Assembly (NCBI GenBank): GCA_945878865.1
Contig: CAMCUD010000015.1
Coordinates: 1-64,000 of the forward strand
Direction of reading: 5' to 3'
DNA: 64,000 nt
From: Bifidobacterium breve
Lineage (GTDB): Bacteria; Actinomycetota; Thermoleophilia; Solirubrobacterales; Solirubrobacteraceae
The position numbers and the translations under genes were made by a program. Positions 32,594 through 53,052 of the stretch are shown piece after piece. Numbering within the stretch: position 1 is the stretch's first letter; every line of letters begins with the position of its first letter. The notes beneath the pieces are model-generated. The model made no database searches and was not told the origin of the DNA. It was given only the letters and a program-made list of their open reading frames with translations.

Positions 32594-32640
32594 AGCGGAT
32601 GAAGGGACTCGAACCCTCGACCTTCTGCATGGCAAACAGA
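32594..32640 (-). other. 3' fragment of tRNA-Gly(GCC): element attachment site
   Basis: Read on the minus strand, the sequence supplies anticodon stem TCTGT/GCAGA, loop TTGCCAT (anticodon GCC), variable region AGGTC, T-arm GAGGG-TTCGAGT-CCCTT, acceptor strand CATCCGC and discriminator T. The D-arm and 5' acceptor strand are missing beyond 32640. This is the usual scar left where an element integrates in the 3' half of a tRNA gene. The integrase gene starts about 160 bases away. Confidence 0.75.
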
Positions 32641-32719
32641 CAGATCGGCGCCGACACGCGGATTCGTGGGCTGACTGAGACGCGTAGACGTCAGTAAACA
32701 CGGGCAAATCATGACAGAT

Positions 32720-32780
32720 TGGTCCGCCCGGTGGTCCGCCCGAAGGGTTGGTCCGCCCCGCCTTTTCAGCTGGTCCGCCC
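32720..32780. repeat. Four TGGTCCGCCC direct repeats upstream of the integrase
   Basis: Exact copies of TGGTCCGCCC at 32720, 32732, 32749 and 32771 (spacing 12, 17, 22). They lie between the tRNA fragment and the integrase start, the place where arm-type sites of tyrosine integrases or excisionase sites are found. Function inferred from position. Confidence 0.7.
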
Positions 32781-32802
32781 GGCGGTACCGTGCCAGGGAG
32801 TC

Positions 32803-34239
32803 ATGGCCGAGCACGCTCCTGATCCCGTGTCCACCGCGTTCCTGTTGGTCGAACGTCGTAAGAAGACGGGAGCCCCGGTCTGGGCGGTGAAGTGGCGGAC
32901 CGCCAGTGGCGAACGCGTGCGTCGACGGCTTGGCGCTGATGCTTGGGTCGAGCCGGCAGAGGGCGGGGGATGGCGTCCCCGGAACGGACGTGCGCCCGCG
33001 GGCACGGCGCTCACGGAGTTCCAGGCCCGCCGGCACATGCCGGAGTTCGTGCGGGCCGCCGAGGCGGAGTTTGCGGCGGCAGCCGTCAGGCGATCACAAG
33101 CGGCCGAGGCAGCGAGCGCGCGCACGTTTCGCCAGCTCGCGCACGCGTGGCTCGACCACCTGGCCGATGTTCGCGCTGCCAAACCCTCGACCCTGCGGGA
33201 CTATCGCTCCATGCTCGCTGAGCCCGGCGTCCCTCATCGGCGTGGCAGCGGGACGACGGTCGGTCGCATCATGGGCGCCCTTGGTGATCTGCCCGCATCG
33301 GCCGTGACCACACGCGATGTCGAGAAACTCCTCGCCGCGCACGCCCGCGAGGGCGTCGGCGCGCGCAGCGTCAACAAGCATCGTCAGGTGATCGCGACGA
33401 TCTTCAACTACGGGCTCCAGCCCGCTCACGCGACTGAGTGGGGCCTGATCTCAAATCCCGCCGCTGCGGCACCGAGGCGGAGGGAGGACGACCCGGTCCG
33501 TCTCGAGGTGTTCACCGTCGAGCAGATTGAGCAGCTCGCACGGGTCGCGGCATCGGGCGCGTGGCGGGCGGAGGGGACGACCGGCGAAGACGGCGAGGAC
33601 GAGCAACTGGCAGAGTTGCTGCGCGTCGCGGCGTACACAGGGCTACGCCGCGGCGAGCTAGTGGTGCTGCGCTGGCGCGATGTGCGCTGGTCCGAACGCG
33701 TCCTCGTGGTGGAGCGCGCGCTGTCTGGCGACGTTGAGGGGAGCACGAAGAGCCGCAAACCGCGATACGTGCCACTTGGCGATCAGCCTCTCGGAGCCCT
33801 TGATCGCCTCTCGCGACGCGCGAACTTCACCGGGGCGGATGACTACGTGTTCGCCGGCATTGCAGGGGACCGGCTGGACCCGTCAGCGCTTCGAAGGCGA
33901 TACGTTGCCGCCCGAGATACGGCAGGTCTCCCACCGCTGCGGTTTCACGATCTTCGCCATACCGCCGGGACGCTCCTGACTCGCGTTCTCGACCCGGTCA
34001 CGGTTCGCGACATCCTCGGGCACGCGGATCTCAAGACGACCGAGCGCTATCTCCACGCCGTTCGTGCGTCTCGCCTTGCCGATGTCGCAACTCGCGCGTT
34101 CGCCGAGGCGGCGCCGGCGGACGCGGATTCAACGGTGCGGGCGGCGCTCGAAGCGGCCGTTGCGCGGTTGGCACCGGAAGAGGCTGAGCGTCTTCTGGAA
34201 AGTATGACGAGACTGGGCGAGGAGCGGCACGTCTCGTGA
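32803..34239 (+). CDS. int: Phage-type tyrosine integrase
   Basis: 478-residue integrase with an AP2-like arm-binding N-terminus (WAVKWRTASGERVRRRLG), a SAM-like core-binding domain (about residues 110-215) and a catalytic domain: YTGLRRGELVVLRWRDV (Arg), KSRKPRYVPL (Lys), FHDLRHTAGTLLTR (His-x-x-Arg), LGHADLKTTERYLHAV (His, Tyr). ATG 32803 excludes the repeat-coded upstream frame. Located next to the tRNA-Gly fragment and pointing into the element, as usual for integrative elements; it should recombine at the tRNA 3' half. Confidence 0.9.
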   Translation: MAEHAPDPVSTAFLLVERRKKTGAPVWAVKWRTASGERVRRRLGADAWVEPAEGGGWRPRNGRAPAGTALTEFQARRHMPEFVRAAEAEFAAAAVRRSQAAEAASARTFRQLAHAWLDHLADVRAAKPSTLRDYRSMLAEPGVPHRRGSGTTVGRIMGALGDLPASAVTTRDVEKLLAAHAREGVGARSVNKHRQVIATIFNYGLQPAHATEWGLISNPAAAAPRRREDDPVRLEVFTVEQIEQLARVAASGAWRAEGTTGEDGEDEQLAELLRVAAYTGLRRGELVVLRWRDVRWSERVLVVERALSGDVEGSTKSRKPRYVPLGDQPLGALDRLSRRANFTGADDYVFAGIAGDRLDPSALRRRYVAARDTAGLPPLRFHDLRHTAGTLLTRVLDPVTVRDILGHADLKTTERYLHAVRASRLADVATRAFAEAAPADADSTVRAALEAAVARLAPEEAERLLESMTRLGEERHVS

Positions 34240-34607: not shown

Positions 34608-35633
34608 TCAGGTCTCGTCGGGTCCACGAAGCGCGTGAGCAATGAGCTCGGGCACCCGCCGCTCGGCGATTCGCAGTCCGTCCTCCAGCTCGACAGTCAT
34701 GGGCGAGCGGTCGACATCTAGCGCTGCCGTCCATGACGAAGGGTGGTAACGGGCCAGCGAGGAGAGGGCGATGAGCAAGGCCCACCAGACAAGGAGTCGC
34801 GATGGAGCGGATGGAGGATCGCCAAGTCGTGGCTGGAGGAACCAGCTGCCATCCACATAGTCAGCGATAGAGTGGATCGATCGAAAGGCCTTCGTGCCCG
34901 GCGTGGCCATGACCGACGGCTCCGCGGGCCAGTGCAGGAGCGCGCTGCACGTTCCTGGCGTGACCGGTGTGACGTCCCCAACGAGCTGGTAGCCCTCCGT
35001 TCGGGCATATCGGTTGAGAATGCTTGCGAGTGCTACCTCGGTTGCCTCGCCCGCCACGACAACCGAGCCTTGTGCGGGCTCGAGCATGGAGCCCAGCATG
35101 CTTGAGTGTGCCGCTGGGAGCGCTATTCGCAACGCCCGCGTCTCACCTGCGGCGATGTGCTGGGCGTCGTGCAGTTCTGGTGTCGCGGCCCACAGCGCTC
35201 CCAGGGTTGTCGCACCCGCCAGCGTGGGTGAGTGGGTGGCTGCCGCGACCGAGGAATACGCGTCGGCCTGGTCCTTTCGCGGCACTGGTATGACCACGGC
35301 GCTCCCAAGGCTGGGGCCGCCGTTGCGCACCTTCAGGCCGTGGCCAAGGATCCTCCAAGTGCCCGACTCGTTGTGAGCCGCGGCGATCGCGCGCCCGGCC
35401 TGGCTAAGCCCATAGAAGAGCAAGAGCGGCTTGGACGCGGGGCCGACAGTGGCCGCTGCGGTGAACAACTCCTCGCTCTGTTCTAGAGAAGCTGCGAAGA
35501 CCCCGCGGCGGGCGTTGTCAGAACCGGCCAGACCCGGCGGGGCTGAGCGAAGTGTTCGAATGCTGCGCCACGCGGTGGACAGGACCATGAAGAGGATCTT
35601 GACGGCGAGATCCGACATAGTGTGACTTTCCAA
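34608..35633 (-). CDS. YaaC-like protein
   Basis: 341 residues. The motifs LLLFYGLSQAGRAIAAAHN near residue 70 and LSSLARYHPSSW near residue 287 are characteristic of the YaaC family of uncharacterised proteins. Lower-GC, different codon use from region 1 fits horizontal origin. It sits next to DUF2971-like and DUF4263-like genes in the integrase-proximal part, where cargo is expected. Activity unknown; a phage-defence role is speculation based on neighbours. Confidence 0.75.
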   Translation of the reverse strand: MESHTMSDLAVKILFMVLSTAWRSIRTLRSAPPGLAGSDNARRGVFAASLEQSEELFTAAATVGPASKPLLLFYGLSQAGRAIAAAHNESGTWRILGHGLKVRNGGPSLGSAVVIPVPRKDQADAYSSVAAATHSPTLAGATTLGALWAATPELHDAQHIAAGETRALRIALPAAHSSMLGSMLEPAQGSVVVAGEATEVALASILNRYARTEGYQLVGDVTPVTPGTCSALLHWPAEPSVMATPGTKAFRSIHSIADYVDGSWFLQPRLGDPPSAPSRLLVWWALLIALSSLARYHPSSWTAALDVDRSPMTVELEDGLRIAERRVPELIAHALRGPDET

Positions 35634-36771: not shown

Positions 36772-37776
36772 ATGAGCGACCTCCTGGCCAAGACCTACGA
36801 ATTGCATCCAGCTCCGCCTCCCGCGCTGCCGTGGGAGGACTACGTCAACCGCATGCAGACCGGTTGGCAGGACCTGCTGGCATCTCACCCGTCGGAGCGC
36901 GAGGTGCAAGCGTTCTTGGAGCGTCATCCCTCGCTCGTCCCCGGCGCGCACGTGGTTCCGGGTCAGCTTCGGAGCGGGCATGCTCCTTTCCCTTGCTCGC
37001 TGGTGACACAGCCGACCCTGACTGGCCTCACGCAGAGAACTCCGGATTTCCTGTGGATGAGCTCGGACAGCCTGACTTTCTCCCCGGTATTCGTGGAGCT
37101 CGAGGCTCCCGACAAGCCCTGGCTGACGGCCGCCGGGTACCAGAGTCACCAGCTGACCCAGGCACTGCATCAGGTCGACGAGTGGTCCGAGTGGTTCGGT
37201 CGCCTCGAGAACCGGCAAGTGTTTCTGGAGGCCTTTGAGGTCCCGTCGTACCTACGCCAGCGGAAATGGAGTCCCGTCTGGCTGTTGGTCTACGGGCGCC
37301 GCGACGAGGATCCGGAGGCCGTCAGCCGGCTTCGCTCGAGGCTGCAAACTGCCAACAGAATTGTCATGGCATACGAGCACCTTCGGCCGGACCGCGACTG
37401 CGACGACTACCTGTGCGTTCGGCGCACGTCGAACGGTTACCGGGCTGTCACAGTGCCGCCCACCGTTCGCCTTGGTCCAAGCACGGCGCGCGACCTGGCG
37501 ATCGTTGCCGGGAAAGCGGAGGCCGCTGCGATCCAGGAATGGGTCACACCTGAACGACGAGAGTTTCTCGCGGACCGATTCTCGTATTGGGACGAATGGG
37601 CGCAAGGGCAGCACGGTCTCATCTCAACTGCCGACCGCAGGTTCTTGCGACCGACATTGCTCTTCTTCAACCGACTGAACTTGATCTCCGTGGTCGTGTT
37701 TGCCGAGCGTGCAAGAGCAGCGGACACAGCCTGCTCGGCGACTGAGCGCTCCAAACGAACGGCCGCCAACGAGTAG
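36772..37776 (+). CDS. Shedu/DUF4263-like nuclease candidate
   Basis: 334 residues. The segment SEREVQAFLERHPSLV resembles the region preceding the nuclease core in Shedu (SduA) and other DUF4263 proteins, and TPDFLW (Asp92) followed by VFVELEAPDKPW (Glu109, Glu111, Lys115) resembles a PD-(D/E)XK active site with an altered third position. Shedu is an anti-phage system in other bacteria. The last about 35 residues overlap a broken DUF3800 gene on the other strand, so the native C-terminus may have been changed. Confidence 0.6.
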   Translation: MSDLLAKTYELHPAPPPALPWEDYVNRMQTGWQDLLASHPSEREVQAFLERHPSLVPGAHVVPGQLRSGHAPFPCSLVTQPTLTGLTQRTPDFLWMSSDSLTFSPVFVELEAPDKPWLTAAGYQSHQLTQALHQVDEWSEWFGRLENRQVFLEAFEVPSYLRQRKWSPVWLLVYGRRDEDPEAVSRLRSRLQTANRIVMAYEHLRPDRDCDDYLCVRRTSNGYRAVTVPPTVRLGPSTARDLAIVAGKAEAAAIQEWVTPERREFLADRFSYWDEWAQGQHGLISTADRRFLRPTLLFFNRLNLISVVVFAERARAADTACSATERSKRTAANE

Positions 37777-37850: not shown

Positions 37851-37944
37851 CGCGCGCAGTCTCTCACCGAGACCAACGCGGCATCCCGCGGTCGGGAAGT
37901 CGCCCGAAGACTTCACGGCATCCGCACGTGGCAGCAGCACGCCC

Positions 37945-37995
37945 GTTGATCTCTATCTGTTGATCTCTATGCGTTGATCTCTTGGGGTTGATCTC
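37945..37995. repeat. Four iteron-like GTTGATCTC repeats, 14-bp period
   Basis: GTTGATCTC occurs at 37945, 37959, 37973 and 37987, exactly 14 bases apart; the first two extend to GTTGATCTCTAT. The 3' end of each unit is variable. Such tandem repeats resemble replication-initiator or partition iterons. It marks the start of a non-coding stretch between cargo and replication genes. Confidence 0.8.
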
Positions 37996-38053
37996 AGAGC
38001 TCAACAGGCCGCCGCCGCGCCGCCGGCCAAGAATCCCCGTCACGCCTGACCTT

Positions 38054-38100
38054 TCGAGGAAGGGGGGTCCACCGCTTCGCGCTGGACCCCCCTTCCTCGA
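38054..38100. repeat. Perfect 18-bp inverted repeat
   Basis: TCGAGGAAGGGGGGTCCA (38054-38071) and its exact complement (38083-38100) enclose an 11-base loop. It is far stronger than a normal terminator hairpin and lies 60 bases from the GTTGATCTC repeats. From about 38110 to 38380 the + strand is purine-rich and shows no gene I can support. Candidate origin, transfer or single-strand initiation structure. Confidence 0.8.
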
Positions 38101-38609
38101 CCTGCCAGATAAACCGGGCAGGGCTGTAGGAGAGGGCGGTGAAGGCCGGCGGCGCGGCGGCGGCTGGGGAAGCCAGAAGAGATCGGAGGGAGTCGGCAAA
38201 GCAGAGATGAGTGGATGAAGCAATAGGTGGGTGAAGCAGGTAGGTGGAGAGAAGGACCGAGAAGCGTGAGGTTGTCGGAAGGCCAGGGGTCGGTCGGAGA
38301 CAGGATGAGACGACCAGGTAGGGATGCGAGGTAGGAGGAGCGAGCGGGGCCAGGGGGAGTGTGCGTCCCTCTTGGGCGGTAGAGGCGCATGTCATCGATC
38401 CGCACTCCGCACTTGATGGTCCTTGTCGCGTTCACAGCGGGCGGCGCATGTGCACGTTGGAGCGGCATCCGCCGGGGCACCGAAGACGGGCGCTGGTCCC
38501 GAGCCACGGCGGGCACGCAGGTGGAGCCAGCGACCAGCGGTGGGTTCCCGCGCTCCCGTGAGGCGGGTTGCGTGGCTGCCCGCGGCTGCATCGTCGGCAC
38601 CCCCCACGC
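38101..38609. other. Non-coding stretch upstream of ssb
   Basis: No ORF with recognisable similarity. The first 270 bases are rich in G and A on the + strand; the remaining part has several overlapping high-GC frames that read as artefacts. Position between iteron-like repeats and ssb makes it a candidate replication-control region. Confidence 0.4.
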
Positions 38610-38675
38610 GGGGCTGTCAAGCGCCGCCCTGTGGGTCGCTGCGCGAGTCCTGACGGACCGTCGCTTGACAGCCCC
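38610..38675 (+). promoter_or_regulatory. Structured leader type 1, copy 1 (before ssb)
   Basis: Perfect 14-bp arms GGGGCTGTCAAGCG / CGCTTGACAGCCCC enclose 38 bases that include GTCC-TGAC-GGAC. A 54-base core (38616-38669) is 49/54 identical to 40360-40413. It ends 73 bases before the ssb ATG. Confidence 0.7.
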
Positions 38676-38742
38676 ACTCGCGGGCGCCGGTAGCCGCCTT
38701 GTCAGCCACGCGACCCGCCCCCACTGGGGCAAGGAGAACACC

Positions 38743-39138
38743 ATGAACCGCTGGACCGGTACCGGGCACCTCACCAAGGACCCAAAGCTCCTCGAGACCA
38801 GCAACGGCACCTCGATCTGCACGCTGCGGATCGCCGTCAAGCGCGCCGGCAAGCAGGGCCAGGACGGCTACTTCGACGTCAAGTGCTTCGACGCGCAGGC
38901 GTCGGCGTGCATGCAGTACCTGAAGGCCGGACGCGAGGTCGCCATCGACGGCCGCCTGCTGTTCGACGAGTTCAAGACGCAGGACGGCGCGTACGCCTCC
39001 CGGGTCTACATCGTCGGCGAGCGCGTCGAGTTCCTCGCCAGCCGCAACCGCACCAACGGTCAGGCCAGCCCCGAGCCGTCGCCCGATGAGCCCGTCGCCG
39101 CTGGCGGCGAGGCGCGCGAGGCCGACCCGGCCGCCTGA
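38743..39138 (+). CDS. ssb: Single-stranded DNA-binding protein
   Basis: 131-residue OB-fold protein: MNRWTGTGHLTKDPKLLETS, then VKRAGKQGQDGYFDVKCFDAQASACMQYLKAGREVAIDGRL, the usual SSB core, and an acidic, Pro-rich C-terminus lacking the canonical DDDIPF tip. AAGGAG lies 8 bases before ATG 38743. An element-coded SSB next to a primase is typical for mobile elements that replicate or transfer as single strands. The hairpin GGCCCGCGGCC-ACGAC-GGCCGCGGGCC follows the gene. Confidence 0.92.
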   Translation: MNRWTGTGHLTKDPKLLETSNGTSICTLRIAVKRAGKQGQDGYFDVKCFDAQASACMQYLKAGREVAIDGRLLFDEFKTQDGAYASRVYIVGERVEFLASRNRTNGQASPEPSPDEPVAAGGEAREADPAA

Positions 39139-39149
39139 CCCACATCGCG

Positions 39150-39176
39150 GGCCCGCGGCCACGACGGCCGCGGGCC
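39150..39176. promoter_or_regulatory. 11-bp hairpin between ssb and primase genes
   Basis: GGCCCGCGGCC and GGCCGCGGGCC pair perfectly around ACGAC; the hairpin ends 22 bases before the primase ATG and starts 11 bases after the ssb stop. It may be a terminator for ssb or a leader for the primase gene. Confidence 0.6.
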
Positions 39177-39198
39177 TGACGACCTGAACGGAACGCTC

Positions 39199-40134
39199 AT
39201 GACCACAACCACTCTCACCAGGCACGAGACGGTCCTGCAGTTCCTGTCAGCGCTCGTCCGGAGCGACACGACGGACGAGCTGCTCGAGTTGCGTTACCGG
39301 CTCGAGGACGGGCAGGGGATGGGGCAGGTCTTCTACCGGCCCTCGCAGCTGCGAGGGCTCGCGACACGTGCGATCTCGCTCGGGCGGCGGACCGACGTCT
39401 ATGTCGGCTGCGCTCCCCGCACGCGCCGGTTCGGCGGCCGCGACGCGGTGCGCCAGGCGCACGCGCTGTGGGTCGACTGCGATGGAGATGAAGCCGTCGC
39501 CGCCCTCCGTGCGTTCCGCCCAGAGCCGGCGATCGTGATCGCCTCGGGGAGCGGCTCGAACTGCCACGCCTACTGGCCGCTGGCCGCTCCGCTTCAGCGA
39601 GACGAAATCGAGCGGGCCAATCGCCGCCTCGCGTGTGCACTTGGTGCTGACCCGGCGTCGGCTGACGCCGCGCGGATCCTGCGCGTCCCCGCGACGTGGT
39701 CGCACAAGCATCAGCCGCCGACCCCGGTCGACGCCACCGTGTTGGACCCGGGGCATCGGTTCTCCGCTGACGAGATCGTCGGCGAGCTTGCTGATCCACC
39801 GGATGAGGCGACGCCGGCGCGCGCGCTGCCCGCGCCTCGCGACAGCGGCCCCGACCCGTTGCGGAGCATCTCGCCGGACGTCTACGTGCAGCGGTTACTC
39901 GGAGTGACCGTGCCGCGGCACCGCAAGGTGCCGTGTCCGTTCCACGACGACAAGCATGCAAGCCTGCACGTCTACGGGACGCCCGAGCGCGGCTGGTACT
40001 GCTTCGGGCGCTGTCGCCGCGGCGGGTCGATCTACGACCTCGCCGGCCCGCTGTTCGGATACGCCACGACCGGCCAGCAGTTCCTGCAGCTCCAGACAGA
40101 GCTGCGGCGACTCTTCGGACTGGACCACGAGTGA
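39199..40134 (+). CDS. Primase: RepB-type AEP domain with C-terminal CHC2 zinc finger
   Basis: 311 residues. N-terminal part has the archaeo-eukaryotic-type (RepB_primase) features: DVYVGCAPR, the metal-binding pair in ALWVDCDGD (Asp93, Asp95), SGSGSNCHAYWPL with His123, and RILRVPATWSHK. The C-terminal part is a CHC2 finger, VPCPFHDDKHASLHVYG with Cys246 and His249 and YCFGRCRRGG with Cys268 and Cys272, which in DnaG-type primases is N-terminal. No TOPRIM domain follows. Likely primes replication of the element. The next small gene overlaps the stop (GTGATG). Confidence 0.85.
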   Translation: MTTTTLTRHETVLQFLSALVRSDTTDELLELRYRLEDGQGMGQVFYRPSQLRGLATRAISLGRRTDVYVGCAPRTRRFGGRDAVRQAHALWVDCDGDEAVAALRAFRPEPAIVIASGSGSNCHAYWPLAAPLQRDEIERANRRLACALGADPASADAARILRVPATWSHKHQPPTPVDATVLDPGHRFSADEIVGELADPPDEATPARALPAPRDSGPDPLRSISPDVYVQRLLGVTVPRHRKVPCPFHDDKHASLHVYGTPERGWYCFGRCRRGGSIYDLAGPLFGYATTGQQFLQLQTELRRLFGLDHE

Positions 40135-40397
40135 TGGGCCAAGCGCGGCCGTCGCACGACTTCTCCTACGTCACGACAGAGATCCCGGAAGGCATGACGA
40201 TCCGCGAGTGGCGCCGCCAGCGCGACCCCAAGCCGGCCAGCTCACCCAACCGGCGGTCGCAAGTCCACGCGACGGTCCGAGCATTCGTCCACACCCTGGT
40301 ACGTCGCGGAGGTGGCGCTCGGTCAGGGCTCGCAGCCAAGCACGGCGTGCTCGGCGGCCGTCAAGCTCCGCCCTTCGGGTCGCTCCGCGAGTCCTGA
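40134..40397 (+). CDS. Small mobile-element hypothetical protein
   Basis: 87 residues from ATG 40134 (GTG 40131 is possible). The block DFSYVTTEIPEGMTIREWRRQR is a conserved-looking helix-rich motif; the C-terminal 15 residues are encoded by the repeated leader type 1 copy 2, so the stop codon lies inside that structure. No function known. Confidence 0.6.
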   Translation: MGQARPSHDFSYVTTEIPEGMTIREWRRQRDPKPASSPNRRSQVHATVRAFVHTLVRRGGGARSGLAAKHGVLGGRQAPPFGSLRES

Positions 40398-40418
40398 CGG
40401 ACCGTGGCTTGACCGCCA
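40356..40418 (+). promoter_or_regulatory. Structured leader type 1, copy 2
   Basis: GTCAAGC / GCTTGAC arms (40360-40366, 40407-40413), with three further pairs outside after one mismatch. The 54-base core differs from copy 1 at five positions; the pair next to the 7-bp arms changes from G-C to T-G, keeping pairing. It ends 29 bases before ATG 40443. Confidence 0.65.
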
Positions 40419-40442
40419 CGCACACCGCGCCCTGGCGCGGCC

Positions 40443-40754
40443 ATGACCAATCACCACCAGCCGGCGAGCACCCCAAGCGGTCCGCCGCCCACACCGCGCC
40501 AGCAGCGCTACCTCCGCCAGCTGGCCATCCAGCGAGGCGTCACGTTCGTCGTCCCGACGACCCGCGCCGAAGCATCCCGCGCCATCGACGCGCTGAAGCG
40601 CCGCAAGCCCGAGCCGTTCGCTGACCGGAGCCGCGAGATCCGCGCTGTGCAGCGCGACATGGCGTGCAACCGGGGCGACGACGCTCGCGTCCTGCACGAC
40701 GTCGAGACCGAGGGCTACGGACGCACCGCCACTTGGAAGCGGGACGACTCATGA
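40443..40754 (+). CDS. Small hypothetical protein
   Basis: 103 residues. The region PTPRQQRYLRQLAIQRGVTFVVPTTRAEASRAIDALKRRK resembles the short DUF3072-like helix domain found in actinobacterial mobile elements and prophages. C-terminus is charged. ATGA overlap with the following gene shows translational coupling. Confidence 0.65.
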   Translation: MTNHHQPASTPSGPPPTPRQQRYLRQLAIQRGVTFVVPTTRAEASRAIDALKRRKPEPFADRSREIRAVQRDMACNRGDDARVLHDVETEGYGRTATWKRDDS

Positions 40755-41035: not shown

Positions 41036-41053
41036 TCGCGGCCACCCGTCGAC

Positions 41054-41116
41054 GGGCCGACCGCCACCCGAGGATGGCACGCCCTGGCGGGCGCGCGGGT
41101 GGCGGGGGATCGGCCC
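41054..41116 (+). promoter_or_regulatory. Structured leader type 2, copy A (before parB-like gene)
   Basis: Nested stems: GGGCCGA/TCGGCCC (outer, 41054-41060 with 41110-41116), GCCACCCG/CGGGTGGC (middle, 41063-41070 with 41096-41103), CGCCC-TGGC-GGGCG (inner). 63 bases, ending 39 bases before ATG 41156. 54/63 identical to copy B at 42811-42873, which sits at the same distance from its gene. Confidence 0.75.
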
Positions 41117-41155
41117 GCCAACGGGGCGGGCCAGCCGAGGTCCAGGAGGACCCAG

Positions 41156-42796
41156 ATGACCACCGCCACGCAATCCGGTCAGCGCGTCGAAGTCGCTCGG
41201 ATCCACATCCCGGAGAACATCCGCGGGCTCGACGACGAGCACGTCGCGGCCCTCGCGGGCTCCATCCAGCTGCAAGGGGTCCTCGTCCCACTGGTCGTCC
41301 GGGAGATCGCGGACGGCTACGAGCTCGTCGCCGGATTCCACCGCATCGCCGCCGTCCAGTCCCTCGGCCTGACCGAGGTGCCCGTCGTCATCCGCGAGGC
41401 CGACAACGAGGACGCCGACCGCGCGGTCGAGAACATCGCGCGCAAGCAGCTCAACCCGTACGAAGAGGCCAAGGCGGTCAGCGCAATGCTCGCCCGAGGC
41501 TTCAGCGAAGACGGGACCGCGCAGGCCCTCGGCTGGTCCAAGGCCCGCATCACCGCGCGGATGAAGATCCTCGAGCTGCCCGAGCGCGCGCAGGAGATGA
41601 TCGGCGAGAACCTGATCCCGCTCAGCGCCGTCGACCAGCTGCGCTCGATCGGCACCGTCTCGCCCGACCTGCTGGACCTCGTCGTCCGCTACCTCGACGG
41701 CGACAACGCGTGGGCGGCCGAGCGACTCGCGCGCGAGCCCGGCTGGGTGCTCGACGCGGCCATGTCGCAGGGCGAAGACCGGCGCGTATTCGCCGCCTAT
41801 CTCGACCGCGCGAGCGGGCACCAGATCGCCGAGCTGCGGCTCGGCAAGAAGACCGACCAGCTGTACGCCAAAGCCGACGAGCTTCACCACCAGCTCGACC
41901 GCTACGCCTATGGCCCGCCCGACATCCGCTTCATTGACGACGACATCGACCGAGCGCGCGCCGCGGGCGTGCTGATCGAGTTCGAGCACCGCCGGCCGGT
42001 CATCGTCGACCGCGCCGTCTACCGAGAGCTCGTCCGCGACGCGGTCAAGCGCACCGTCACCGAGCTCGAGACGAAAATCGCCGAGGCCGCCGCAGCCAAG
42101 AAGTCGGCCCGCTCCACCGCGAAGCCGGCCGATCCCGTAGCCGTCGCCAAGCGCGAGCGCGACGGCCAGCTGCGCGAGCTCGCCGACCAAGCGCACAGCG
42201 TCAACCTCGACCTCGGCCACGCGCTGCTCCACGACCTGGCCGCCGTTGACCCCACGGACATGAACGTTGCCCGGTTCTTCGTCTACGCGCTGCTCGGCGC
42301 TGACCACGACAGCTCCCCGTACACGCAGACCGGCGAGCGCATCGTCCGGATCGCCGCGGGCGGCGTCCGTCTCATGGTCGAGGAGCTGCGCACCGACGTC
42401 ACGAAGACCAAGAAGGACGGCAGCCGCGGCCGGCTGCGGATCGACTACGGCGATCACCGCGACCCGCAGGCCGCGATCGCCTGGCTATGGAAGTTCGTCG
42501 ACGGCGCGAAGACCGCGGGCGAGCTCTACGGCCGGGCGCTCGTCGTCATCGCCGCCGAGCAGCACGCGAGCCGGCTCGTCGTCAGCCCGAGTCAGCGGAC
42601 GCCGGCGACCCGGTGGAGCTCCCACAAGGACCACGCCGAGAAGGCGCTGCGGAAGCTCGCGGGGCCCCACGTCCCGGCGTCCCTGACGAAGCTCGAGCGG
42701 TCCGTCAAGCGGGTGCATGCGGCGTACGAGCGCGCGGAGACCGAGGCGCGCACCAGCGGTGGCACGTTCTCCTCGGACGAGGAGCGCGCCGCGTAG
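41156..42796 (+). CDS. ParB/Spo0J-like nuclease-domain protein
   Basis: 546 residues. The N-terminal ParB domain shows VARIHIPENIRGLDDEHV, SIQLQGVLVPLVVREI, YELVAGFHRIAAVQSLG and NEDADRAVENIARKQLNPYEEAKAVSAML (boxes I-II), then an HTH-like AQALGWSKARITARMKILELP. The long C-terminal half (residues about 210-546) is not recognised. Such large ParB-like proteins occur in actinobacterial plasmids and integrative elements; no ParA is nearby, so a role in segregation is uncertain. Good Shine-Dalgarno CAGGAGGA. Confidence 0.85.
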   Translation: MTTATQSGQRVEVARIHIPENIRGLDDEHVAALAGSIQLQGVLVPLVVREIADGYELVAGFHRIAAVQSLGLTEVPVVIREADNEDADRAVENIARKQLNPYEEAKAVSAMLARGFSEDGTAQALGWSKARITARMKILELPERAQEMIGENLIPLSAVDQLRSIGTVSPDLLDLVVRYLDGDNAWAAERLAREPGWVLDAAMSQGEDRRVFAAYLDRASGHQIAELRLGKKTDQLYAKADELHHQLDRYAYGPPDIRFIDDDIDRARAAGVLIEFEHRRPVIVDRAVYRELVRDAVKRTVTELETKIAEAAAAKKSARSTAKPADPVAVAKRERDGQLRELADQAHSVNLDLGHALLHDLAAVDPTDMNVARFFVYALLGADHDSSPYTQTGERIVRIAAGGVRLMVEELRTDVTKTKKDGSRGRLRIDYGDHRDPQAAIAWLWKFVDGAKTAGELYGRALVVIAAEQHASRLVVSPSQRTPATRWSSHKDHAEKALRKLAGPHVPASLTKLERSVKRVHAAYERAETEARTSGGTFSSDEERAA

Positions 42797-42810
42797 CGCG
42801 CTGCGGCGCG

Positions 42811-42873
42811 CGGGCCGATCGCCACCCGAGCGTGGCACGCCCTGGCGGGCGTGCGGGCGGCGAGACTTCGGCC
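42811..42873 (+). promoter_or_regulatory. Structured leader type 2, copy B (before ardC-like gene)
   Basis: GGGCCGA/TCGGCCC, GCCACCCG/CGGGCGGC (one A-C mismatch), GCACGCCC-TGGC-GGGCGTGC inner stem (perfect 8 bp here, interrupted in copy A). Ends exactly 39 bases before ATG 42913, as in copy A. Confidence 0.75.
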
Positions 42874-42912
42874 CGCGCACCCGGCGCGGGCGACCCGAAG
42901 CAGGAGCCCGTC

Positions 42913-43818
42913 ATGGCCCGCCGATCCACGAAGAAGTCCCTCTCGCCCGCCGAACGCGAGGCGCGTCGCAAGGCCGACCGCGAGCGCCTCGAGCAGGCGG
43001 CTCGCGCTCTCCTGACCACGGACGGATGGCAGCGCTGGATTCGCGTGCGCGCGCGCAACGGCCTCTCGCGCTACAGCGTCGGCAACCAGCTGCTCATCGC
43101 CATTGACTGCCACCTGCGCGGGATCACGCCGACCTACGTCGCCGGCTTTCGCACCTTCCTCGACCTGAACCGCTGCGTGCGCAAGGGAGAGCGCGCGATC
43201 AAGATCCTCGCGCCGTGCCCGGTCAAAGAGCGCGACGACACCGGCGAGGAGACGGGGGAGAGGAAGGTCTTCTTCCGGTCCGTTCCCGTCTTTGACGTGA
43301 GCATGACCGAGCCGCTCCCGGGGAAGGAAGCCATCGCGCTCGAGCCGCCCTGCGAACCGATCATCGGCGAGAGCCACCAGCACCTGGTCGGGCCGCTCGT
43401 CGCGCTCGCCTCTGACCTCGGCTACGCGGTCGAGTTCCGCGACCTCCAGGAGCACGGGCCGCAGGGCTGGTGCGACGCGAAGGCCAAGCGGATCGTCATC
43501 GCGAGCGGTCCGGCCAACGGCCAGGTCCGAACCCTCACACACGAGATCGCGCACGCACTCGGCATCGGATACGAGCAATACGGCCGCGAGCACGCCGAGG
43601 TCCTCGTCGACTGCGTCACCTATGTCGTCTGCTCGTCGGTCGGTCTCGACATCGGCGGCGAGTCCATCCCCTATGTCGCCGGCTGGGGCGAAGACGGAGC
43701 CCTCGAAGCCGTCCGCGAGTACGCCGACACGGTGGACGCGCTCGCCCGGCGCATCGAAGACGCCCTGACGGCAAGCAGCGAGCCGGCACCGGCGGACCTC
43801 CCCGAGTCGATCGCCTAA
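42913..43818 (+). CDS. ArdC-like antirestriction/ssDNA-binding metallopeptidase-fold protein
   Basis: 301 residues. The N-terminal region (YSVGNQLLIAIDCHLRGI... RTFLDLNRCVRKGERAIKIL) matches the ArdC ssDNA-binding domain (DUF1738), and the C-terminal half is an ImmA/IrrE-like zincin with HEIAH at residues 210-214 and a second acidic region GREHAEVLVD. In plasmids ArdC protects entering DNA from restriction. The protein is shorter than classical ArdC but has both parts. The upstream leader type 2 may control it. Confidence 0.82.
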   Translation: MARRSTKKSLSPAEREARRKADRERLEQAARALLTTDGWQRWIRVRARNGLSRYSVGNQLLIAIDCHLRGITPTYVAGFRTFLDLNRCVRKGERAIKILAPCPVKERDDTGEETGERKVFFRSVPVFDVSMTEPLPGKEAIALEPPCEPIIGESHQHLVGPLVALASDLGYAVEFRDLQEHGPQGWCDAKAKRIVIASGPANGQVRTLTHEIAHALGIGYEQYGREHAEVLVDCVTYVVCSSVGLDIGGESIPYVAGWGEDGALEAVREYADTVDALARRIEDALTASSEPAPADLPESIA

Positions 43819-43834: not shown

Positions 43835-43941
43835 GGGCTGCATGCCCCATGGTCGGACGCCGCGACGGCCAGGGCGGCGCGGACAGGGTGCGTGGCGGTG
43901 CTCTCGCCGACGCGGCGTCCGCGGTGCGGAGCATGCAGCCC
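43835..43941 (+). promoter_or_regulatory. Long nested dyad before the sigma-factor gene
   Basis: GGGCTGCATGC (43835-43845) pairs perfectly with GCATGCAGCCC (43931-43941), and inside it GGACGCCGCG (43855-43864) pairs with CGCGGCGTCC (43911-43920). It ends 27 bases before ATG 43969. Different from leader types 1 and 2 in sequence. Confidence 0.6.
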
Positions 43942-43968
43942 CGAACCGCATCCACCACAGCTGCCGTC

Positions 43969-44469
43969 ATGGGCGACGAAGAGGCCCTATTCCGCCGGCA
44001 CCACGCCGAGCTCCGACGCGCGGTCCGGCACGTCGTCAACGCGTCGCCCGAGCTGGTCGAGGACGCCTGCCAGATCGCCTGGACGCAGCTGCTCCGCAAC
44101 CAGCCCCGCCGCGAGTCCGTCTTCGGCTGGCTGCGGCAGGTCGCGATCCACGAGGCGTATCGCCTCTCCCGGATCGAGCGGCGCGAGCTCCGACTCGACC
44201 TGCTCCCGGGCGACCGACAGCGCGCGATCCGCGACGGGTTCGACCTCGACAACTCCGTCCGCGCGCGCGAGGCGCTCCGCCTGCTCGCCTCGCTGCCGGA
44301 GAAGCAGCGCCGCGACTACGCCCTCCACGCCGCCGGATTCACCTACAAGGAGATCGCCGAGCTGAGCGGCCGGACCCGCACCAACGTCGACAAGACGCTG
44401 GACAGAGCCCGCGCCCGCATCAGGCTCGAGCGCCTGCGGGCACACCCCGGCGCGCGAGGGGCCAAGTAG
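43969..44469 (+). CDS. ECF-type sigma-70 family factor
   Basis: 166 residues from ATG 43969 (43933 is possible but lies in the dyad). Region 2 appears as EEALFRRHHAELRRAVRHVVNASPELVEDACQIAWTQLLRNQ with ESVFGWLRQVAIHEAYRL, region 4 as LASLPEKQRRDYALHAAGFTYKEIAELSGRTRTNVDKTLDRARARI. No anti-sigma gene adjoins, only a 55-residue protein. A sigma factor in a mobile element may control element functions or cargo. Confidence 0.85.
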   Translation: MGDEEALFRRHHAELRRAVRHVVNASPELVEDACQIAWTQLLRNQPRRESVFGWLRQVAIHEAYRLSRIERRELRLDLLPGDRQRAIRDGFDLDNSVRAREALRLLASLPEKQRRDYALHAAGFTYKEIAELSGRTRTNVDKTLDRARARIRLERLRAHPGARGAK

Positions 44470-52040: not shown

Positions 52041-52116
52041 GATGCGCCGTCCGAATTGCTAACGTCCCGGCCGAGCCGAGTCGTGGCCGCCCTGCGGCCG
52101 TGTACGGGGGACCCAG

Positions 52117-53052
52117 ATGTCCCGGGGCGAATCGGTCGGTCTCGGCCGTAGCGCGTCAGCGCAAGCCCGTCAGCTAACCCCGGAGGCTCGACGACGACCA
52201 CAACACCATCGCGTGCTGCGCCGAGCTGCCTTCATCCCGATCGTCGCCTCCACGATCCTGCTGATCTCGACCGAGCCAGCACAGGCGGAGGGCGGAGCCG
52301 CGGCGTTCGCCGAGCCCGAGCTCGAACGCATCGAGTGCGTCACCCCGAAGGGCGAGGCCTGCTCGACCGAACGGGTTCCCGCCGGCGCACAGGTGCGCAT
52401 GCTCGGGACGGACCTTCGCCAAGTGCGGCAAGTCGTGTTTCGCGGTGGGTCCGGCGGGCGCGACGACATCGCGGCGCGCGTCACCCACGCTGGAGCGCGC
52501 CACGCCGACGTCCAGGTACCGGGGAAGGCCCGCACCGGACCACTCGACCTCGTGGTCCTTGGTGGGACCACAACCCGCGCGGTGCGGCGGCTGGTCGTCG
52601 AAACGCTGGCGCTCCCTGCCGCGCAGCGCGACGACCACGTCTTCCCGATCCAGGGCCGCCACGACGTCGGGCAGAGCGAGACGAACAACTTCGGCGGCGG
52701 GCGAGGCCACCAGGGGCAGGACATGTTCGCGGACTGCGGCACCCCGCTGGTGGCCGCCCAGGGCGGGACCGTGCGGATCGCAAAGGCCGACCACCCTCGC
52801 GCCGGGAACTATCTCGTGATCACCGGTGCGACCAGCGGACTCGACTACGTCTACATGCACCTGCAGGCCCCGCCCACCGTCGAGACCGGCGACCCGGTGA
52901 CGACGGGACAGCCCCTCGGTGCGGTCGGCGACACCGGCAATGCCTCCGGCTGCCACCTGCACTTCGAGCTGTGGTCCGCGCCCGGCTGGTACCGCGGCGG
53001 CGCGCCCATCGACCCGCTCCCGCGCGTGCGGGCGTGGGATCCAGACCACTGA
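52117..53052 (+). CDS. Secreted M23 (LytM-type) peptidase
   Basis: 311 residues. A hydrophobic signal follows residue 33 (VLRRAAFIPIVASTILLISTEPAQA), giving either a long n-region from ATG 52117 or a GTG start at 52213. The C-terminal M23 domain has GHQGQDMFADCG (HxxxD) and SGCHLHFELW (HxH), the zinc ligands. Middle region (about residues 60-160) is a beta-rich domain of unknown type (IPT-like). Cuts peptidoglycan peptide bridges; with the BlaI-type dyad it suggests a cell-wall response. Confidence 0.87.
   Translation: MSRGESVGLGRSASAQARQLTPEARRRPQHHRVLRRAAFIPIVASTILLISTEPAQAEGGAAAFAEPELERIECVTPKGEACSTERVPAGAQVRMLGTDLRQVRQVVFRGGSGGRDDIAARVTHAGARHADVQVPGKARTGPLDLVVLGGTTTRAVRRLVVETLALPAAQRDDHVFPIQGRHDVGQSETNNFGGGRGHQGQDMFADCGTPLVAAQGGTVRIAKADHPRAGNYLVITGATSGLDYVYMHLQAPPTVETGDPVTTGQPLGAVGDTGNASGCHLHFELWSAPGWYRGGAPIDPLPRVRAWDPDH

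What the first reader, a model, noticed from the sequence alone, without database searches (positions are those of the whole stretch)
38610..40418. Repeated structured leader, type 1
A 54-base core occurs before ssb and again before the 40443 gene with 49/54 identity. The conserved part has long pairing arms, and one outer pair changes from G-C to T-G while still pairing. In copy 2 it also encodes the end and stop of the preceding gene. This may be a regulatory RNA motif shared by the element's genes.
Basis: partly seen in the sequence, partly recalled or inferred. Interest (0 to 1): 0.65.

Follow-up and report, generated by a model that had tools for sequence, protein, structure and literature searches.

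The report
Folded single-strand DNA site before ssb
A mobile DNA element carries the same intricate folded hairpin in front of two sets of genes that protect newly arrived DNA, and comparison across relatives suggests that the DNA strand itself folds, perhaps to switch those genes on just after transfer, rather than the RNA copy.

Summary
The repeat is real: two copies of a 54-base core, 49/54 identical, at window 38616 and 40360. Relatives share one fold: stem GTCAAG/CTTGAC closing a four-way junction of three tiny hairpins. On 33 sequences, 12 base pairs show double compensatory changes (shuffles 7.8). No Rfam family matches. A covariance model finds it at E<=1e-4 in 23 of 232 genomes of the order. 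In 14 of 18 loci it lies near relatives of the window's integrase, ssb, ArdC, ParB, primase or DUF3072 genes; none of 18 control stretches has any. The window copies lie in a 73.5-kb tRNA-integrated element.

The RNA-leader reading is weakened: the core shows almost no G-U pairs, and in most copies the complement of the mRNA (template of the downstream genes) folds better. F plasmid's region upstream of ssb, where Frpo2 lies, leans the same way, more weakly.

Best reading: a single-stranded-DNA signal working like F's Frpo promoter, with a novel head, that starts leading-gene transcription or priming on entering DNA. No conserved -10 box was found, so I do not file it as Frpo. Another ssDNA priming site or oriT is the main rival. 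No experiment supports any reading.

The parts
38616..38671 (+). motif copy 1 core (upstream of ssb): P1 GTCAAGCG/CGCTTGAC, three hairpins P2-P4 at a four-way junction without linkers
   Evidence: R1 hit
38562..38719 (+). whole imperfect hairpin of copy 1 (outer arms GGCGGGTTGCGTGGCTG / CAGCCACGCGACCCGCC), ending 23 bases before the ssb start codon
   Evidence: self-complementary match 38562-38719; minus-strand DNA fold -75.5 kcal/mol for 38535-38745, z -5.6
40360..40415 (+). motif copy 2 core (upstream of the DUF3072-like gene)
41053..41128 (+). second kind of hairpin leader, before the ParB-like gene; also folds better on the minus strand
42811..42886 (+). second kind of hairpin leader, before the ArdC gene; 83% like 41053-41128
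38743..39138 (+). ssb
   Evidence: Pfam SSB E=3e-19
39199..40134 (+). RepB-type primase with DnaG-like zinc ribbon
   Evidence: Pfam RepB_primase E=1.3e-5 and Zn_ribbon_DnaG E=1.5e-5
40134..40397 (+). 87-aa ORF ending inside copy 2
40443..40754 (+). DUF3072-like gene
   Evidence: Pfam DUF3072 E=9e-5, below the curated cut-off
41156..42796 (+). ParB-like gene
   Evidence: Pfam ParB_N E=3e-14, HTH_ParB
42913..43818 (+). ArdC-like antirestriction gene (start codon read)
   Evidence: Pfam ArdcN E=1e-9 on the enclosing ORF 42487-43818
43849..44469 (+). ECF-like sigma factor; relatives of it lie beside two other motif loci
   Evidence: Pfam Sigma70_r4_2 E=8e-11; cluster 7
32719..34239 (+). tyrosine recombinase (integrase) of the element
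   Evidence: Pfam Phage_integrase E=6e-28
32595..32635 (.). left attachment repeat, 41 bp, identical to contig C15 106138-106178 (outside the window); resembles the 3' part of a tRNA gene
   Evidence: the similar stretch C54:5461-5547 overlaps a tRNA

Best explanation
A cis-acting single-stranded-DNA signal of an integrative (probably conjugative or mobilisable) element. Shown: the structure, its covariation, its place before ssb, DUF3072 and (as a second kind of hairpin) ParB and ArdC-type genes, and a fold that is stronger on the strand complementary to the genes' mRNA. Inferred: when that strand enters a recipient (or is exposed during replication) it folds into a long hairpin with a four-way-junction head. 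The host polymerase, perhaps with the element's own sigma factor, or a primase, recognises the folded DNA (TTGAC sits double-stranded in P1) and starts RNA there. That RNA expresses the establishment genes (SSB, ArdC, ParB-like) before the second strand exists and/or primes that strand. When the DNA becomes double-stranded the fold and its activity disappear. It works like Frpo of plasmid F, with a different sequence and head.
For: Covariation: on 33 distinct rows, 12 pairs with double changes against 7.8 +- 0.9 in shuffles, 104 cells against 35.6 +- 4.4; on the first 7 rows, 5 pairs against 1.5. Place: ssb, primase, DUF3072, ParB, ArdC in one direction, like the F leading region: antirestriction, ssb, ParB-like, psiB. 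At least one of six window proteins has a relative in 14 of 18 motif loci and 0 of 18 control stretches. In G169 the order is ArdC, motif, DUF3072, sigma, TrwC relaxase, an F-like geometry. Strand: A-C 36 against G-T 7 in type A outer arms; the minus strand folds better in 13 of 14, 16 of 20 and 2 of 2 copies of type A, type B and second-kind leaders, z<0 in 13 of 14, 15 of 20, 2 of 2 after dinucleotide shuffles. F positive control: the region upstream of ssb leans the same way, -56.3 against -50.7 kcal/mol. Almost no wobble in the core against 4% G-U in tRNAs. The P4 loop is TNNC on the mRNA strand, so GNNA on the other, in 33 of 33 rows. Two sites in one element fit a promoter better than an oriT.
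Against: No -10 box: within 15-20 bases of TTGAC no TANNNT is conserved; type A has TNGGCT-like, type B GCTAC bases. The strand bias partly reflects composition (shuffled expectation A-C:G-T about 1.66:1), and copies are not independent. In type B, A-C does not exceed G-T (17:23). The F control exceeds its own shuffles only slightly (-5.6 against -3.0, sd 2.4). The tRNA control shows no strand lean either, so the test is of unknown power. In L291, L295, L299, L300 and L054 the next downstream gene called reads towards the motif, and in L294 a called gene overlaps it (heuristic gene calls). The TrwC relaxase model has no match in G000; the window element has a coupling-protein-like ATPase and a Replic_Relax protein more than 50 kb away on the contig, and no complete transfer apparatus was shown. 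In G208 the relaxase lies on the opposite strand. Streptomyces toxytricini carries motif-like copies in palindromic dispersed repeats.
Confidence: 0.42

Rival explanations
1. Another single-strand site: a primase start site (like ssi of RSF1010 or the phage G4 origin, both recalled) or part of an oriT, serving DNA synthesis or nicking rather than gene expression.
For: A RepB-type primase gene lies between the two window copies. CTA/CTG-like bases sit at the hairpin foot on the minus strand. G169 has a TrwC relaxase 1.5 kb downstream. Same strand and covariation evidence as the best reading.
Against: A relative of the primase is near only 1 of 18 motif loci. Two same-direction copies in one element do not suit a single oriT. 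No conserved nick-like sequence was recognised. The site stands directly before leading genes in type A.
Confidence: 0.25
2. An RNA leader: the mRNA folds and a protein (SSB, DUF3072 or other) or ligand controls translation or stability of the downstream genes.
For: It stands shortly upstream of start codons in type A. Covariation is what structured RNA shows. The commonest P2/P3 loops read TNC closed by C-G, which can also be read as UNCG tetraloops on the mRNA strand.
Against: G-U pairs are rare in the core and fewer than A-C in type A outer stems. The complementary strand folds better. No Rfam match. In several loci the next gene called reads the other way.
Confidence: 0.13
3. A double-stranded DNA element: an operator or extruded cruciform bound by an element protein (ParB-like, DUF3072, integrase or sigma factor).
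For: P1 is a strong palindrome GTCAAG/CTTGAC. The motif goes with ParB and DUF3072 genes. Streptomyces toxytricini carries it in palindromic dispersed repeats.
Against: A dimer operator would not need the covariation of three separate inner hairpins. A cruciform would not favour one strand.
Confidence: 0.1
4. A non-coding RNA transcribed from the minus strand, antisense to the leader.
For: The minus strand folds better, and the A-C excess in type A equals G-U on the minus strand.
Against: In the core, A-C is 8 of 978 cells, well below the G-U share of tRNAs of the same genome (28 of 705). No promoter or terminator for such an RNA was sought.
Confidence: 0.07

Closest known systems
Frpo / ssi single-stranded promoters of F and ColIb-P9 (PMC9849209, passages read; PMC11541004, passages read)
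   Same: upstream of ssb and other leading genes; a long imperfect hairpin on the template strand; several per element; TTGAC in the stem; similar size
   Different: no DNA match to the plasmid collection; head is a four-way junction of three mini-hairpins; no recognisable -10 box; other phylum, integrated element; no experiment
STAXI motif, RF01728 (PMC2864571, one section and passages read)
   Same: same neighbourhood: ssb, antirestriction, XerDC-type integrase; repeated; the paper itself weighs single-stranded DNA against RNA
   Different: STAXI is built of tandem pseudoknots; this is one hairpin with a four-way junction; the Rfam STAXI model does not match (in one search the control genomes were silent too)
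Single-strand initiation sites (RSF1010 ssi, phage G4 origin; recalled only)
   Same: hairpins on single-stranded DNA; here near a RepB-type primase gene
   Different: a primase relative is absent near most copies; the sites precede genes

Membership tests
Frpo-type single-stranded promoter | lies in the leading region upstream of ssb/anti-defence genes | tested here: met
   gene set met; that the region enters first was not shown
Frpo-type single-stranded promoter | long imperfect hairpin formed by the template strand | tested here: met
   F control
Frpo-type single-stranded promoter | -35 and -10 boxes reconstituted in the stem | tested here: not met
   TTGAC is conserved in P1; no conserved TANNNT at 15-20 bases
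Frpo-type single-stranded promoter | RNA polymerase transcribes the single-stranded form | not testable with these tools
   needs in vitro transcription
STAXI (RF01728) | match to the covariance model | tested here: not met
   no match; 0 of 232 genomes, but no control genome rang
STAXI (RF01728) | tandem pseudoknots | tested here: not met
   the structure found is nested with a four-way junction; no separate pseudoknot search was run
known cis-regulatory RNA (any Rfam family) | match above the gathering score | tested here: not met
   the only match in the window is a c-di-AMP riboswitch at 52074-52188; searches give chance-level matches only
oriT of a MOBF element | one site per element beside the relaxase gene with a nick sequence | tested here: inconclusive
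   TrwC 1.5 kb downstream in G169; two sites in the window element; no TrwC match in G000

The most novel reading that the evidence does not exclude
A new class of single-stranded-DNA promoter in actinobacterial integrative elements: a cloverleaf-headed hairpin on the incoming strand, read by RNA polymerase with an element-encoded sigma factor, so that genes are expressed only while the element is single-stranded. The second kind of leader before ParB and ArdC would be a second design of the same device.
Probability: 0.28. Interest if true: 0.85.

Novelty: new variant of a known kind. Interest (0 to 1): 0.62.

Why it matters
Expression from incoming single-stranded DNA is known from a few plasmids of enterobacteria. 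A covarying structure of similar design in integrative elements of Solirubrobacterales would suggest that the strategy is general, and its strand-asymmetric fold gives a sequence-only way to look for others. It would also bear on an open doubt about STAXI: whether structures beside ssb, antirestriction and integrase genes are RNA or folded DNA. The stable-loop argument alone is ambiguous, because TNC loops closed by C-G on one strand read as GNA loops on the other.

Tried and rejected
Known RNA family: rejected, no Rfam match. Close DNA relatives in plasmids and phages: none for 38500-40450. Virus element: one viral contig (L058) fits the strict pattern and scores 54 bits with R1. The genome contigs pattern scan found 106 stretches (L059-L164); I gave R1 the first 80 plus L058, and most of those without a strong score are probably chance matches.

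Simple sigma-70 promoter in the stem: a -10 box was sought in both arms. The best TANNNT-like score on the minus strand is above shuffles (type A 2.57 against 1.82; type B 3.01 against 1.87), but T at -7 is not conserved, so I do not claim a promoter consensus.

Stop codon in the hairpin as a regulatory feature: rejected, it is TGG in Svornostia abyssi. Type B was first taken for a host repeat; integrases nearby put it in mobile elements too. Rows dropped: the model alignment A2 holds 70 matches, of which I used the 52 sense rows, 50 distinct, then 33 from Solirubrobacterales. The association test used 18 of 20 fetched loci, leaving out L303 (short) and L304 (near relative of the window), and 18 of 20 control places (two did not exist). 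The assignment to type A or B was by eye and gene context. The gene calls come from a simple GC-position heuristic.

Full report
What is there. Two copies of one repeat lie at 38612-38701 and 40356-40445. The 54-base cores are 49/54 identical, and the 20-mer in their centre occurs only there (expected 0.03). The core forms a stem GTCAAG/CTTGAC that closes a four-way junction of three small hairpins with no linkers. DNA folding finds this form on both strands of copy 1 and on the minus strand of copy 2, while RNA folding of either strand prefers a different interior. Copy 1 extends to a 158-nt imperfect hairpin, 38562-38719.

It is a family. A BLAST search of 232 genomes of the order gave both copies in the same genus (G195, which by contig match is Svornostia abyssi J379) and diverged copies in G111, G169 and G147. 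Seven of these (A1) gave covariance model R1. With R1, 46 of 232 genomes match at E<=0.05 and, by my count of the list, 23 at E<=1e-4. At phylum level 4 of 396 genomes match at E<=0.001, the window's own included. A pattern scan of GTDB contigs gave 106 stretches, of which I gave 80 to R1. Outside the order, the strongest scores came from Streptomyces toxytricini, an alphaproteobacterial MAG (3 copies) and a Microbacteriaceae MAG.

Covariation. On 33 distinct rows from the order, 95% of cells pair (79% in shuffles), 12 pairs show double changes (7.8) and 104 cells do (35.6); no shuffle of 500 reached these. Shuffles do not correct for relatedness. P1 positions 1-6 hardly vary; P2, P3 and P4 swap C-G, G-C and T-A freely. 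The P4 loop is TNNC in 33 of 33 rows.

Where it lies. The window copies stand before ssb and before a DUF3072-like gene, in a row ssb, RepB-type primase, small ORF, DUF3072, small ORF, ParB, ArdC, sigma factor. A second hairpin kind stands before ParB and ArdC. A perfect 41-bp repeat at 32595 and at contig position 106138 bounds a 73.5-kb tRNA-type insertion with an integrase at one end and a serine recombinase at the other, a coupling-protein-like ATPase and a Replic_Relax protein. Elsewhere the motif occurs as type A (DUF3072, ArdC, ssb, integrase downstream; in G169 ArdC upstream, a sigma factor and a TrwC relaxase downstream) or type B (often an ATPase with weak HerA/TrwB-like matches and an M48 or other gene upstream, a small gene, in some HTH_17, and an integrase downstream). 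In 18 motif loci of 14-20 kb, relatives of the window integrase were found in 10, ArdC in 8, ssb in 6, DUF3072 in 6, ParB in 4, primase in 1; any of them in 14. In 18 control stretches of the same genomes or near relatives there were none.

RNA or DNA, and which strand. In the core, 926 of 978 lettered pair cells are Watson-Crick, 12 G-T, 8 A-C and 32 other. tRNAs of the window's genome, scored by ARAGORN, have 28 G-T of 705 and no A-C; ARAGORN may not admit A-C, so only the G-T figure is a fair comparison. In the 60-nt arms outside P1, mismatches flanked by pairs are A-C 36 and G-T 7 in type A (shuffled arms 431:260), 17 and 23 in type B (459:576), and 8 and 6 in five distant copies. The minus strand folds better under DNA parameters in 13 of 14 type A (one tie), 16 of 20 type B and 2 of 2 second-kind leaders. 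Against dinucleotide shuffles z<0 in 13 of 14, 15 of 20 and 2 of 2; with RNA parameters 14 of 14, 20 of 20 and 2 of 2. For the bare cores the lean is small. Fourteen tRNAs show no lean (z<0 in 7 of 14 with DNA parameters, 8 of 14 with RNA parameters), so the test is of unknown power for known RNAs. The region upstream of ssb in F leans the same way (-56.3 minus, -50.7 plus; difference -5.6 against -3.0 +- 2.4 in shuffles), as does that upstream of the antirestriction gene; a third F stretch leans the other way. The folded strand is thus more probably the template strand of the downstream genes, which an ordinary leader RNA does not explain. Copies within a genus are related, so the counts overstate independence.

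How it may work. In F, Frpo1 and Frpo2 fold on the entering strand, carry -10 and -35 boxes, and drive ssb and other leading genes early (PMC9849209, passages). Leading-region surveys find such promoters upstream of ssb and anti-defence genes; the word beginning 'actinobacteri' does not occur in the main text of PMC11541004 (passages). The F stretch fetched here shows antirestriction, ssb and ParB-like genes in one direction, the same kind of set as in the window. I infer the same kind of device. TTGAC is conserved and paired in P1, but no conserved TANNNT follows; type A shows TNGGCT-like and type B GCTAC bases about 16-21 positions away. A primase start or another polymerase-sigma pair remains open, so I do not file it as Frpo.

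Novelty. No paper in the searches I ran describes it: Frpo with leading-region terms, DUF3072 (0 papers), ssDNA-promoter, Actinobacteria and folding terms, RNA motif with ssb, Solirubrobacter with integrative elements. I read search listings and, for three papers, passages or one section. The library is open-access only. The nearest in neighbourhood is STAXI (one section read), which differs in structure and does not match by model.

Against. No -10 box, no demonstrated transfer system, no A-C excess in type B, several loci with the next called gene reversed, one relaxase on the opposite strand, and palindromic repeats in Streptomyces toxytricini that carry the core. The strand evidence is statistical and the function is inferred.

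Noticed in passing
window 37944-38164: Four TTGATCTC repeats at a 14-base spacing, then a 21-bp perfect inverted repeat (38008-38028/38144-38164) enclosing another near-perfect one (38054-38100), the latter conserved in Svornostia abyssi: a possible origin or oriT upstream of ssb.
   Followed up: partly
window 41053-41128 and 42811-42886: Second kind of hairpin leader before ParB and ArdC; it also folds better on the minus strand. Its distribution in other genomes was not searched.
   Followed up: partly
window 43849-44469: ECF-like sigma factor in the leading region; relatives beside the motif in G169 and G118. It might read the hairpin promoter.
   Followed up: partly
window 52074-52188: c-di-AMP riboswitch match (52 bits, RF00379) inside the element.
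   Followed up: no
window 36772-37776: Shedu (SduA C-terminal) defence-like protein inside the element, near a YaaC-like protein gene (34608-35633).
   Followed up: no
L307, L310, L311, L313-L322 (Streptomyces toxytricini, G232): 13 motif-like copies, several in roughly 1-kb imperfect palindromic dispersed repeats with internal tandem repeats of about 62 bp.
   Followed up: partly
L094, L099, L125 (alphaproteobacterial MAG): Three copies followed by a conserved stretch GGGACGGAGAAACNGCTC...GCCGAACAAAGAAAC of unknown role; a similar stretch follows weaker matches in Bradyrhizobium (L077) and a Myxococcota MAG (L066).
   Followed up: no
type B loci, e.g. L032, L035, L298: A second, sequence-variable hairpin (such as GTCGGCAGG/CCTGCCGAC) follows the motif at a near-constant distance, and GTAGC is conserved at the foot.
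   Followed up: partly
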